Shown: one piece after another, positions 3,426 through 49,040 of the stretch
Layout: each line of letters starts with the position of its first letter
How positions within the stretch are numbered: the first letter of the stretch is position 1
The notes under the pieces: model-generated
The model's input: the letters and a program-made list of their open reading frames with translations, nothing else
Told to the model about the DNA's origin: nothing
The model's database searches: none
Made by a program: the position numbers and the translations under genes
Assembly: GCA_945877405.1 (NCBI GenBank)
Contig: CAMCSA010000010.1
Span: 1 to 58,978, forward strand
From: an uncultured Erysipelotrichaceae bacterium
Lineage (GTDB): Bacteria; Bacillota_I; Bacilli_A; Erysipelotrichales; Erysipelotrichaceae
DNA length: 58,978 nt
Reading direction: 5' to 3'

Positions 3426-3471
3426 AAAAAAACATCCATGTTCAGCATACGCATTACTGTCACATGGATGT
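3426..3471 (-). terminator. Leader terminator (expression platform) before the CDF gene
   Basis: Minus-strand ACATCCATGT and ACATGGATGT form a perfect 10-bp stem with a 20-nt loop and a T7 tail, inside the 5' leader about 50 nt before the CDF start. Its 5' arm overlaps the 3' arm of the last aptamer helix, so the two folds exclude each other. Confidence 0.85.
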
Positions 3472-3531
3472 GATAATCCACTGTCACCAGGTGACCCGAC
3501 CTCATGATATAAAACCACAGTCTGTTCAGAT
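3454..3531 (-). promoter_or_regulatory. Candidate NiCo (czcD) riboswitch aptamer
   Basis: Read on the minus strand, the leader runs CUGAACAGAC, a hairpin GUGGU/AUCAU, GGUCGGGUCACC, a hairpin GUCAC/GUGAC, a stem UGGAU/AUCCA and finally GUGACAGUA. The order and conserved pieces (CUGA-CAG-C, CGGG and terminal GACAG) match what I remember of the NiCo riboswitch, a four-way junction found before CDF genes in Bacillota. The last helix competes with the downstream terminator, as expected for a metal-induced ON switch. The outer P1 helix is short here. Identification is by eye. Confidence 0.65.
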
Positions 3532-3606
3532 TGTACCGTATTCGCAGTGCAAAGAGATGACAATATTAACGCATGTCAGTCAGATATTAGTCAAGCGTAA
3601 CATCAG

Positions 3607-46193: not shown

Positions 46194-46607
46194 CTATTCC
46201 ACTGTAATTGTATATCTCTCTCCATTAGAACATTCAACCGATACAACACTTTGATCAACCAGCTCAAACAGCCATACAACTTCAGCTGTCATACCTGGCT
46301 GTACAGATGCATCACATTGGATTGCTCCTTCTGTTTTCTGACCAGTGAATACCATGACTGTAATTTCCTTACCGTGCTGGAATGCCTTTACATCAAAGAC
46401 ATCACATGGCATGCATGTTTCATCACTGTCATTGGTATATTGGAAGAATACCCCGACAAGATCATGGTCATAACCGACCTGTGTACCTTCTATCATTTCA
46501 CCTTTGATATATGAAAGTGTATGTTCAGATACCGGATCAGTTTTACTACACCCGGCTGCCAATAATACAAGCAAACACGTTAATACACATGTTATGATAC
46601 GTTTCAT
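46194..46607 (-). CDS. Small lipoprotein, DUF5067-like
   Basis: A 137-residue exported lipoprotein. The signal (IITCVLTCLLVLLAAGC) ends in a lipobox with Cys near residue 20. The mature part is beta-rich (VGVFFQYTNDSDETCMPCDVF; VQPGMTAEVVWLFELVDQS), like DUF5067 and related immunoglobulin-like lipoprotein domains. Two adjacent ATGs; the second is used because AGGA is very near the first. Confidence 0.75.
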   Translation of the reverse strand: MKRIITCVLTCLLVLLAAGCSKTDPVSEHTLSYIKGEMIEGTQVGYDHDLVGVFFQYTNDSDETCMPCDVFDVKAFQHGKEITVMVFTGQKTEGAIQCDASVQPGMTAEVVWLFELVDQSVVSVECSNGERYTITVE

Positions 46608-46634
46608 CATATCCTGTTTGGTATATATAAATTA

Positions 46635-46816
46635 GCTCATCCAGCTGAGTCAAATCTATATACATCTCCTTTCTCTTCCGGCTTAGTTTCGGCCCGGAAA
46701 CCGAGTAGAATTGAGATTGTGAATGCGTACTTGTATCTCATATTCTTGTAGCTTTGACTACGTGGAGGATTATCTGGCCGCTTCGTTGTATGGAAACTGT
46801 AATTAGTTAGATGAGC
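46635..46816 (+). ncRNA. Candidate IS110 bridge RNA
   Basis: The non-coding left part of the IS110 element can fold into a 182-nt unit closed by GCTCATC (46635-46641) and GATGAGC (46810-46816). Inside are TTCCGG/CCGGAA, GAGAT/ATCTC with a large loop, and GTAG-CTTTGA-CTAC. IS110 elements such as IS621 express a bridge RNA of similar length upstream of the recombinase that guides target and donor choice. The loop sequence TTGTAGCTTTGACTA is matched in inverse orientation at 48442-48456, past the transposase. Boundaries are guesses. Confidence 0.4.
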
Positions 46817-46920
46817 CCTTCTTTTATTGAAGTGAGTTCACATTTCGAACCATATTCTCTGATACTTTTGAAACGGCGGTACTGGTATTCGTCACTTATA
46901 TTTTTGAAAGGAGTGATACC

Positions 46921-48096
46921 ATGATTAACATCGGTATTGATGTCGGTAAATTCAAGCATTGTGCTTCTGTCATAGATGACAAGACCGGCGAGATTCTTAT
47001 AAAGCCTTTTTTCTTCAATAACGATCAGAAAGGCTTTGATCTGTTCTATTCTAAAACCAAACAGTATATTCATATAAAACATTCCGTTGGTATGGAAGAC
47101 ACTGGTCATTATATGATCAATCTTACAAATTTTCTTTTGGATAAAAAGTTCACTGTTAAATTTATCAATCCCAGATCTACTTGTCTCAGACGTAAAGAAC
47201 TTGGCATGTCAGCCAAGAATGATCGCAAAGATTCTATTCTTATTGCAGAAATGCTCAGTGAGAAAAAATCCTGGAGATCTGTAACTCACACAACACAAGA
47301 AACTGATAAGCTTCGTGAAATCACACGTCTGTATTATCAGTTACAGGAACAGCAGAATGAAGATATGAATCGCCTTCAACGTGCTTTGGATATTGTCTTT
47401 CCTGAAGCAAACAAGCTCTCCTGGACACGCTATTCTAAGGCCTATATGCAATTCTTAGCCAAGTATCCTACTGCTGCTTCTATTGCCTCTGAAGACATCC
47501 GCAATCTTCGTAATGCCCTTAAAACTGACGGACGTGGCAGACAATGTAAGCTCACTGCTGAAGATATCAAAGAAGCTGCCAAATGTTCTGTTGGTGAAGA
47601 TAACATTGCGGTTGCACTCGAAGTGCAGTCAATCATAGCTATTATCAACACTCGTAAGCAACAAATCGAAAAGCTGGAAAATAAAATAGAAGAATTCAGC
47701 CTGAAACTAAACTCTCCTATCATTTCCATCCCTGGCATTTCTCACATAACAGGAATGACCATCATTGCGGAGATTGGCGATATTCACGATTTTTCAGACG
47801 CCGCACATCTGATATCTTATGCCGGCATGGAGCCCCTCGTACACCAGTCTGGGAAATACGACGCTGCACATATGCCAATATCCAAACACGGATCTCGGTA
47901 TTTGCGCAAAGCATTGTATCAAGCGGTTTTTACCGTCTGTAAATATTGCTCAACCTTCAATGCTTATTATACCAAGAAACGCAATCAAGGTAAAACACAT
48001 CGTTGTGCACAAGGTCATTGTGTACGCAAGCTGTTACGTGTCATCTACAAGCTTTTAGCGAACAATATTACATTCGATGAAAATCTAGTCAAATAA
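46921..48096 (+). CDS. IS110-family transposase (DEDD recombinase)
   Basis: A 391-residue RuvC-like recombinase. The acidic tetrad is visible as D7 (IGIDVGK), E59 (GMEDTGHY), D101 and D104 (KNDRKDS), spaced as in IS621. The C-terminal Transposase_20 domain carries IPGISHITGMTIIAEIGDI and a conserved serine in VHQSGKY, then SKHGSRYLRKALY. A coiled coil joins the two (about 235-262). AAAGGAG precedes the start. The frame is intact, so the element may be active unless the insertion after the gene destroyed its right end. Confidence 0.95.
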   Translation: MINIGIDVGKFKHCASVIDDKTGEILIKPFFFNNDQKGFDLFYSKTKQYIHIKHSVGMEDTGHYMINLTNFLLDKKFTVKFINPRSTCLRRKELGMSAKNDRKDSILIAEMLSEKKSWRSVTHTTQETDKLREITRLYYQLQEQQNEDMNRLQRALDIVFPEANKLSWTRYSKAYMQFLAKYPTAASIASEDIRNLRNALKTDGRGRQCKLTAEDIKEAAKCSVGEDNIAVALEVQSIIAIINTRKQQIEKLENKIEEFSLKLNSPIISIPGISHITGMTIIAEIGDIHDFSDAAHLISYAGMEPLVHQSGKYDAAHMPISKHGSRYLRKALYQAVFTVCKYCSTFNAYYTKKRNQGKTHRCAQGHCVRKLLRVIYKLLANNITFDENLVK

Positions 48097-48101
48097 TTGA
48101 C

Positions 48102-48410
48102 TATTAGAGTCCGGCGAAAAGGGCCAAATATAGTGCACCAAAAAGAGCCAAAACAAAACATACTTTCTTATCAATGGCGAGCTTATGCCGCGAAAGCCGC
48201 TTGAAAGCTAGGGGCCTCCCTGCTACACTTGTGTGCTCCGGTGTTGCCAAGGGGCTTTATTTTCGCCAGCGGAGCGCTTTTGAGGGTGCAGGGAGGCGGT
48301 ACCTGGCTGTCAAGTGGATCGTGGAATAACGAAGCCATGATAAGCACCGTCATATAATCAATGGCCCAAATCAATGGTCTGAAAATGGCCCTTTTTGCCG
48401 GACTCTAACA
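48102..48410. mobile_element. 309-bp non-autonomous inverted-repeat element (MITE-like)
   Basis: Imperfect terminal inverted repeats of about 25 bp (left TTAGAGTCCGGCGAAAAGGG, right inverse TTAGAGTCCGGCAAAAAGGG) are flanked by the 5-bp direct duplication TTGAC (48097-48101 and 48411-48415). There is no transposase gene. Subterminal repeats of AAAGGGCCA type and a terminal CA at the right recall IS21-family ends. An internal GCCTCCCTGC (48214-48223) pairs with GCAGGGAGGC (48288-48297), giving a strong 84-nt fold. It sits 5 bp after the IS110 transposase stop. Confidence 0.8.
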
Positions 48411-48456
48411 TTGACAAATACTTACAGAATAATCAATCACATAGTCAAAGCTACAA

Positions 48457-48740
48457 CTGTAGTTGTTTTGATAGTACTTTATTCACAATTTCAAAGATCA
48501 GTTTGGGATTCTGCTGGATTTCTTAACATTCCCTAATATCTTTCATTTATCACTTGACTTCCTTATAGTTAAATCCTCAATATTTCTTTCTGTAGTTACC
48601 AAGGCATGTTCCATCTTCTGTTTTCCATGCCATGTTACCATCCATATCTTCCATCCTCCATGATTGTAGTGAAATAGTCTAAATATCTTTCATCTACAAT
48701 TATAGAGGAATCCAGAAGATTAGAAAATCCGCAGGAATAT
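48457..48740. other. Intergenic remnant region
   Basis: No complete gene. A short minus-strand frame near 48580-48680 (WRMEDMDGNMAWKTEDGTC ending in KKY and a stop) looks like the C-terminal end of a lost secreted protein. Confidence 0.25.
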
Positions 48741-49040
48741 TTGGCGCTTACAATCAAGGTAAAGCCACTGTGCCAGCCTTCGGGCTGGCATTATTTTGTC
48801 CAGAGGACTGGTTATTTACCATATACTGACATGAAAGCCATGAGTCGTTGTCTGAATTTTGGTAAGAGCGTCATGGATAACAGCCCGTCCAGCAAAAAAT
48901 GCTGTATGTGCGGAAAGGTGAAAAAAGAACTGAAATTATCCGAGCGGATCTATCGCTGTGACTGTGGAAGTGTCATGGACAGGGACAAAAACGCAGCAAT
49001 CAATATCCGTGAAGAAGCGCGGAGAATGCTGACTGCATAG
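48741..49040 (+). pseudogene. TnpB remnant with internal deletion
   Basis: The second half of this frame is the C-terminus of a TnpB (IS200/IS605 or IS607) protein: DMKAMSRCLNFGKSVMDN, then PSSKKCCMCGKVKKEL and YRCDCGSVMDRDKNAAINI, the four-cysteine zinc ribbon and last RuvC Asp. Normally about 25 residues lie between VMDN and PSS and are missing, and the whole N-terminal three quarters is gone. A hairpin GCCAGCC-TTC-GGGCTGGC followed by ATTATTTT at about 48771 occupies the upstream part, so the first 30 codons are not real coding sequence. Confidence 0.8.

What the first reader, a model, noticed from the sequence alone, without database searches (positions are those of the whole stretch)
46635..48456. 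IS110 with candidate bridge RNA and inverse end match
The left non-coding part folds into multiple hairpins of about 182 nt, and a 15-bp segment of it recurs inverted at the right end. IS110 recombinases use such RNAs to choose DNA partners; the catalytic tetrad is intact.
Basis: partly seen in the sequence, partly recalled or inferred. Interest (0 to 1): 0.55.

Follow-up and report, generated by a model that had tools for sequence, protein, structure and literature searches.

The report
RNA-guided insertion sequence targeting ribosome-binding sites
This is a small jumping DNA of a known RNA-guided kind whose guide RNA appears to aim it at the ribosome-binding site just in front of host genes, and it seems to bring a spare ribosome-binding site along, which may let it land there without silencing the gene.

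Summary
The finding is a real IS110-group insertion sequence, with corrected ends. Comparison of copies puts it at 46620-48572, flanked by cores at 46618-46619 and 48573-48574, with a 308-bp foreign inverted-repeat element (48102-48409) nested after the transposase stop codon. The left non-coding end has the anatomy of a bridge RNA: target loop, donor loop, and a promoter formed only at the circle junction. Its right target guide matches the flank of its own insertion in 48 of 50 positions over 10 relatives (permutation p=0.0004). That guide reads Shine-Dalgarno (SD) sequences: 18 of 19 distinct insertions of this clade lie 4-9 nt before a host start codon, with the SD left 1.6 kb away. On the opposite strand the left end carries AGAAAGGAG (a 9-nt complement of the 16S rRNA tail), then a hairpin more stable on that strand in 22 of 22 loci; looped out, SD-to-AUG spacing is 8-13 nt. 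I infer, without experiment, that the element replaces the SD it displaces. The 15-bp inverted match is real but subterminal: part of a clade-wide inverted motif that makes the right end antisense to the bridge RNA. New variant of a known kind.

The parts
46618..46619 (.). left core dinucleotide (TT here; TT or AT in relatives)
   Evidence: boundary of sequence shared by 11 close copies with unrelated flanks
46620..48572 (+). IS110-group element without cores; about 1645 bp once the nested 308 bp are left out
   Evidence: ends from close copies and from multi-copy cousins
46921..48096 (+). IS110 recombinase, 391 aa, DEDD + Ser domains
46622..46627 (+). -10 (TATATA) of the circle-junction promoter
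   Evidence: read; 17 bp from the -35 once right end and left end are joined; not tested by expression
48554..48559 (+). -35 (TTGACT) of the circle-junction promoter
   Evidence: read; conserved in relatives
46633..46890 (+). predicted bridge RNA (start and end inferred)
   Evidence: conserved left end in 11 copies; start inferred from the junction promoter; RNA not observed
46739..46747 (+). left target guide, by position in the target-binding loop
   Evidence: layout; covaries with flank in cousins (p=5e-5) but not in this clade (p=0.44, n=8; p=0.20, n=14)
46748..46761 (+). apical hairpin of the target-binding loop GTAGCTTTGACTAC
46762..46770 (+). right target guide GTGGAGGAT, which reads a Shine-Dalgarno; ends in core AT
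   Evidence: 48 of 50 positions match own flank in 10 relatives, p=0.0004
46804..46812 (+). left donor guide TAGTTAGAT (donor end TAGTTAAAT)
   Evidence: covaries with donor end, 50 of 62, p=5e-5 over 31 elements
46849..46853 (+). right donor guide ACCAT (pairs with core AT + GGT)
   Evidence: ACC-AT in core-AT elements, ACC-AG in most core-CT elements
46666..46674 (-). AGAAAGGAG: Shine-Dalgarno-like sequence facing the host gene
   Evidence: invariant in this clade; complement of CTCCTTTCT in GGATCACCTCCTTTCT, found in 4 of 4 genomes of the family
46620..46665 (-). bottom-strand hairpin between that sequence and the host start codon
   Evidence: more stable than the top strand in 22 of 22 loci; 207 of 215 pair cells form on the bottom strand, 169 of 215 on the top
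46711..46773 (+). left arm of the subterminal inverted repeat (motif TTGAGATTGTGAAT at 46711-46724)
48429..48499 (-). right arm of the subterminal inverted repeat (motif at 48481-48494)
   Evidence: left arm x right arm duplex z -6.6 against shuffles
48573..48574 (.). right core dinucleotide AT
48575..48580 (-). displaced Shine-Dalgarno of the host gene (TTGAGG)
   Evidence: right flank, matched by the right target guide
46194..46610 (-). host gene whose start codon lies 9 nt from the element's left end (DUF5067 domain)
48102..48409 (.). nested foreign element with 23-bp inverted ends and 6-bp repeat ATTGAC (48096-48101, 48410-48415)
   Evidence: related sequence elsewhere in the genome (16 matches listed, partial ones and itself included; alignment)

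Best explanation
An IS110-group element whose left end encodes a bridge RNA. When the element excises as a circle, right and left ends join and create the promoter for that RNA. The RNA's donor loop pairs with the element's own ends; its target loop, mainly its right target guide, pairs with a Shine-Dalgarno sequence, so the recombinase inserts the circle between the SD and the start codon of a host gene, with the transposase gene antisense to it. In this clade the left end carries, on the strand of the host gene, a substitute SD (AGAAAGGAG) and a hairpin that, when formed, brings it to 8-13 nt from the host AUG; I infer that this keeps the host gene translatable. Shown by sequence: ends, guide-target and guide-donor covariation, place of insertions, substitute SD, strand-specific hairpin. 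Inferred: RNA production, recombination, rescue of translation. The inverted right arm probably acts as antisense partner of the bridge RNA's target half (role least certain). The confidence given is for the bridge RNA aimed at SD sequences; the rescue of translation is rated apart in the section on the most novel reading.
For: Ends shared by 11 copies with unrelated flanks. Right target guide against own flank: 48 of 50, expected 28.1, p=0.0004 (10 of the 11 close copies; one has no right flank); cousins, one per guide pair, 84 of 110, expected 49.2, p=5e-5. Left target guide in cousins 159 of 198, expected 123.6, p=5e-5. Left donor guide 50 of 62, expected 38.3, p=5e-5; right donor guide switches AT/AG with the core. 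18 of 19 distinct insertions of this clade have an ORF start codon within 2-18 nt of the left junction; over all groups 36 of 50 against 1026 of 6000 random positions. Only 15 of 116 guide-like sites in the window lie so, so guide match alone does not explain the place. Substitute SD invariant; hairpin favours the bottom strand in 22 of 22 loci, 13 distinct sequences. Spacing 8-13 nt after looping. T4 genes 38 and 25 use such a hairpin (PMC3014915, passage).
Against: The left target guide of this clade does not match its flanks better than permuted ones. The left end is not unusually stable as RNA. The substitute SD is largely open in an 80-nt context (mean 0.72 unpaired) but less so with 130 nt (0.47); its complement also takes part in a bridge-RNA scaffold helix (read), so its conservation has another possible cause. 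Host transcription must read about 1.6 kb of element or start inside it; no convincing outward promoter was found (11 promoter-like sites against 6.9 expected). No RNA, excision or translation data. No empty site was found for this locus (no real homologue in 70 genomes), so the core is assigned by comparison of copies.
Confidence: 0.78

Rival explanations
1. The bottom-strand SD and hairpin are by-products: the sequence is conserved only as the 5' stem-loop and scaffold helix of the bridge RNA on the top strand, and host genes are simply silenced by insertion.
For: The complement CTCCTTTCT can pair with AGAATTGAG in the left end (read); opening of the SD falls to 0.47 in longer context; in the cousins hairpin stability has no strand bias towards the bottom (in one search, 14 elements favour the top strand and 16 the bottom, 8 of these 16 being of the window clade).
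Against: In the window clade the top-strand hairpin is weaker than the bottom-strand one in all loci, mostly by 4-13 kcal/mol; 38 more of 215 pair cells form on the bottom strand than on the top; the ORFs in front of which the element sits are open.
Confidence: 0.4
2. The inverted right arm is a second, bottom-strand guide RNA: it repeats the bridge RNA's 5' half including a target-loop hairpin and has its own variable stretch where the right target guide would lie. Host transcription always enters from this end, so it would be expressed from the host promoter.
For: Same motifs in the same order; variable stretch between conserved blocks in the right arm; hairpin pairs kept as G-U on the bottom strand in L007 and L029 (read).
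Against: Bottom-strand fold is no better than shuffles (mean z -0.34; top strand -0.98); no donor loop seen in it; the left-guide equivalent can close into a small hairpin (read); I saw no flank that its variable stretch matches (by eye).
Confidence: 0.17
3. The inverted right arm is an antisense of the bridge RNA, carried in the 3' part of the transposase mRNA: left and right arms pair (panhandle) and hold the target loop inactive or tie recombinase synthesis to bridge RNA. This is the role I favour within the best explanation.
For: Left x right duplex z -4.4 to -6.6 in 10 of 10 of this clade, -0.6 to -5.2 in 21 cousins; own arms pair better than swapped ones, p=5e-5 (31 elements, also 21 cousins alone). 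Relatedness is not removed by the swap test, and a few right arms were anchored on an earlier TGAAT, which weakens the signal.
Against: A shared protein-binding motif would also give own-better-than-swapped; pairing is imperfect at the guide itself; no RNA data.
Confidence: 0.45
4. Insertions lie before start codons only because insertions elsewhere are lost by selection; there is no aim at SD sequences.
For: Only 13% of guide-like sites lie before a start codon, so something besides the guide shapes the observed places.
Against: The guide itself changes with the flank (GGAGG, AGGAG, GAGGT, AAGGT), 48 of 50.
Confidence: 0.07

Closest known systems
IS621 / ISCro4 bridge-RNA recombinases (IS110 group)
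   Same: DEDD + Ser recombinase, long left end with target and donor loops, promoter at the circle junction, guide includes the core dinucleotide, ATA/TAT next to the donor core (sections 5-7, 12 and passages of PMC11208160; alignment)
   Different: Target is a Shine-Dalgarno; right end is about 160 nt with an inverted copy of part of the bridge RNA's 5' half; left target guide weak in this clade; substitute SD and strand-specific hairpin at the left end
ISEc21 (IS110 family, seekRNA)
   Same: Upstream RNA region, top-strand match 3' of the bottom-strand match (section 12 of PMC11187229)
   Different: Target lies in a transposase gene; nothing about translation signals in the sections read
ISPpu9 with Asr9 and Ssr9 sRNAs
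   Same: IS110-family element with an RNA region downstream of tnp that is partly complementary to the antisense of the upstream one, and control by RNA pairing (abstract and passages of PMC8450116)
   Different: Ssr9 lies on the same strand as tnp (not inverted); target is a REP sequence
T4 genes 38 and 25 translation initiation regions
   Same: Structure between SD and AUG shortens spacing from 22 to 5 and from 27 to 11 nt (passage of PMC3014915)
   Different: Phage genes; here the SD and hairpin belong to an insertion sequence and the AUG to its host

Membership tests
IS110 group (bridge-RNA) | DEDD RuvC-like domain and Ser domain | tested here: met
IS110 group (bridge-RNA) | left end longer than right end, with the RNA region upstream of tnp | tested here: met
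   left 301 nt against about 166 nt without the nested element
IS110 group (bridge-RNA) | target guides match the insertion flanks | tested here: met
   right guide met; left guide met in cousins, not in this clade
IS110 group (bridge-RNA) | donor guides match own ends and core | tested here: met
IS110 group (bridge-RNA) | promoter reconstituted at the circle junction | tested here: met
   by sequence only: TTGACT, 17 bp, TATATA (read)
IS110 group (bridge-RNA) | RNA made and bound by the recombinase; RNA-dependent recombination | not testable with these tools
   needs experiment
IS1111 group | RNA region downstream and right end longer than left end | tested here: not met
IS1111 group | subterminal inverted repeats of 7-17 bp a few bp from the ends | tested here: not met
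   inverted motif lies about 75-115 nt from the ends; only ATA/TAT next to the core (read)
TIGR-Tas | Tas protein family model | tested here: not met
   NCBIfam TIGR_Tas_endo 27.9 bits against a cut-off of 100; no array was looked for

The most novel reading that the evidence does not exclude
A bridge-RNA insertion sequence programmed to cut host genes off from their Shine-Dalgarno and to replace it with its own, held at working distance from the host AUG by a hairpin on the host-gene strand: a translationally silent insertion strategy, comparable in purpose to self-splicing of introns but achieved by a substitute ribosome-binding site. The paired inverted arms would in addition fold the rest of the element out of the read-through mRNA.
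Probability: 0.4. Interest if true: 0.85.

Novelty: new variant of a known kind. Interest (0 to 1): 0.68.

Why it matters
Known bridge-RNA elements in the papers read aim at repeats or at other mobile elements. A clade that aims at ribosome-binding sites has many possible sites per genome and must solve the problem of not silencing the gene behind it. If the substitute-SD model holds, it shows how an RNA-guided element limits its cost, gives a directly testable reporter experiment, and supplies naturally retargeted guides (sister copies whose guide and flank change together) for work on programmable recombinases.

Tried and rejected
Empty site of this locus: the left flank has no real homologue in 70 genomes of the genus, so no empty site; L028's flank has homologues mostly at 65-75% identity, not used. 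Viral contigs: no relative. Terminal-inverted-repeat reading of the 15-bp match: rejected, the arms lie 75-115 nt inside the ends. Right-end RNA on the bottom strand: not supported by folding. Left target guide of this clade reading the spacer or start codon: no better than permuted. Right arm freeing the SD in the read-through mRNA: inconclusive, mean 0.38 alone, 0.53 with own right arm, 0.43 with shuffled arm, two of ten in the wrong direction. Outward promoter in the left end: only chance-level candidates. The index for L046-type elements is shifted by two positions, which understates their match; left as it was. Rows dropped: L006, L007, L008 lack a left flank; L147 could not be parsed; L002, L012, L031, L106, L097 and L113-L116 were left out of some counts as distant, duplicate or partial. 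Literature: searches (listings seen) showed no report of an IS110 element aimed at Shine-Dalgarno sequences or carrying a substitute one; the library lacks most subscription papers and preprints. PMC11780869 was looked at (passages) and is not relevant.

Full report
What was checked. The region holds one IS110 recombinase gene, 46921-48096, above the curated cut-offs of PF01548, PF02371 and NCBIfam transpos_IS110. Its acidic residues and serine align with ISCro4, and IS621 is the next match. The inverted match is real: 28 nt, 86% complementary, with 15 exact bases. Rfam at gathering level has nothing in the element.

Ends. The own genome has one copy; a second match is only 29% identical. Of 272 genomes of the family, 26 have a match at E <= 1e-60. 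Aligning 11 close copies (64-100% protein identity) shows where similarity stops: the left end is GGTATATA at 46620 and the right end is TAGTTAA + core AT at 48573-48574. The given span (46635-48456) therefore misses 15 nt on the left and about 118 nt on the right, and includes a nested element of 308 bp with 23-bp inverted ends and a 6-bp direct repeat, with related sequence elsewhere in the genome. Cousins with several near-identical copies (G014, G174, G235) confirm the end positions by homology and show a CT core, as in IS621 (the IS621 core is recalled).

Bridge RNA anatomy. Joining right and left ends gives TTGACT, 17 bp, TATATA (read). Downstream lie, in the order described for IS621, a left guide, an apical hairpin GTAGCTTTGACTAC, a right guide, then a left donor guide TAGTTAGAT and a right donor guide ACCAT. 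The right guide changes with the flank of its own copy: GGAGG, AGGAG, GAGGT and AAGGT variants each sit at a matching flank; 48 of 50 positions over 10 copies, 28.1 expected, p=0.0004. Cousins: right guide 84 of 110 (49.2 expected), left guide 159 of 198 (123.6 expected), both p=5e-5, one per guide pair, n=22. The flanks are independent genomic sites, so shared descent of the elements does not produce the match. Left donor guide against donor end: 50 of 62, p=5e-5 (31 elements, related ones included); the right donor guide ends in AT where the core is AT and in AG in most elements where it is CT. The left target guide of the window clade does not beat permutation (p=0.44, n=8; p=0.20, n=14).

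Target. The matched flanks are Shine-Dalgarno sequences. Over all groups, 36 of 50 insertions have a start codon of an ORF 2-18 nt from the left junction, reading away, against 1026 of 6000 random positions. A DNA search with the left end found further copies at contig ends; for the window clade 18 of 19 distinct insertions with a left flank lie 4-9 nt before an ATG (one search prints L028 with an earlier TTG; one search gives its ATG at 8). The exception is L029. Guide-like sites lie so in only 15 of 116 cases in the window, so selection or an unrecognised determinant adds to the guide. In this window the host gene is a DUF5067 protein gene, 46610-46194.

Substitute ribosome-binding site. In this clade the SD stays on the right flank, an element's length from the AUG, and the bases left before the AUG hold no good SD (this copy keeps an AGGA close to its ATG). 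On the host-gene strand the left end carries AGAAAGGAG, invariant in the clade and complementary to the 16S tail CTCCTTTCT, whose 16-base context is present in 4 of 4 genomes tested (the own assembly lacks it; that this is the 16S end is recalled). Between it and the AUG is a hairpin: bottom strand more stable than top in 22 of 22 loci, 13 distinct sequences, 207 of 215 pair cells on the bottom strand against 169 of 215 on the top, three pairs with changes on both sides (G-U pairs shared by descent count many times). Looped out, spacing is 8-13 nt (the values of 5 printed for L004 and L028 come from an earlier start codon). T4 genes 38 and 25 work so (PMC3014915). Cousins, which insert inside the SD and keep AGGA or the like next to the AUG, have no such strand bias. 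Against: the SD is less open in longer context (0.72 at 80 nt, 0.47 at 130 nt).

The inverted arms. A model built from left-end motifs alone finds the right-end motif on the minus strand, in 22 hits before any other place in 36 elements. The more distant relatives L113, L114 and L116 (33-39%) gave no hit. Left and right arms pair far better than shuffles in all 10 of this clade (z -4.4 to -6.6) and in many of the 21 cousins (-0.6 to -5.2), and better with their own than with swapped partners (p=5e-5). So the right end is an antisense of the bridge RNA's target half; a second RNA on the bottom strand is not supported by folding but not excluded.

Known systems. IS621 (PMC11208160, sections 5, 6, 7, 12 and passages read), ISEc21 (PMC11187229, sections 12 and 13 and passages), ISPpu9 with Asr9/Ssr9 (PMC8450116, abstract and passages). 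None of what I read describes an SD target or a substitute SD. It belongs to the IS110 group by every feature testable here, except that the left target guide of this clade was not confirmed; the target, the substitute SD and the inverted arm make it a new variant.

Noticed in passing
48741-49040 (+): C-terminal remnant of a TnpB-like RNA-guided nuclease gene (PF07282) to the right of the element
   Followed up: partly
3455-3539 (-): NiCo riboswitch, 60.2 bits against a gathering score of 37
   Followed up: no
48102-48409: Nested inverted-repeat element related to sequence elsewhere in this genome (16 listed matches, partial ones and itself included); no transposase identified for it
   Followed up: partly
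L113 (NZ_OY725734.1, 1563 bp circular): A deposited 'plasmid' of Monoglobus that holds only an IS110 gene; may be an excised IS110 circle sequenced by chance; not verified
   Followed up: partly
L103, L104, L105 (one genome): Sister copies whose right guide differs by one base (TTAGGAA / TTAAGAA) sit at flanks that differ in the same way: natural retargeting or guide capture
   Followed up: no
L014, left flank: The bases left of this cousin equal the element's own left-guide region, as if it had inserted into a copy of its own guide
   Followed up: no
right arm of L005 and L030 (one genome): Two sister copies differ by 10 bases over the compared element; the only difference seen in their right non-coding ends lies in the variable stretch of the right arm
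   Followed up: no
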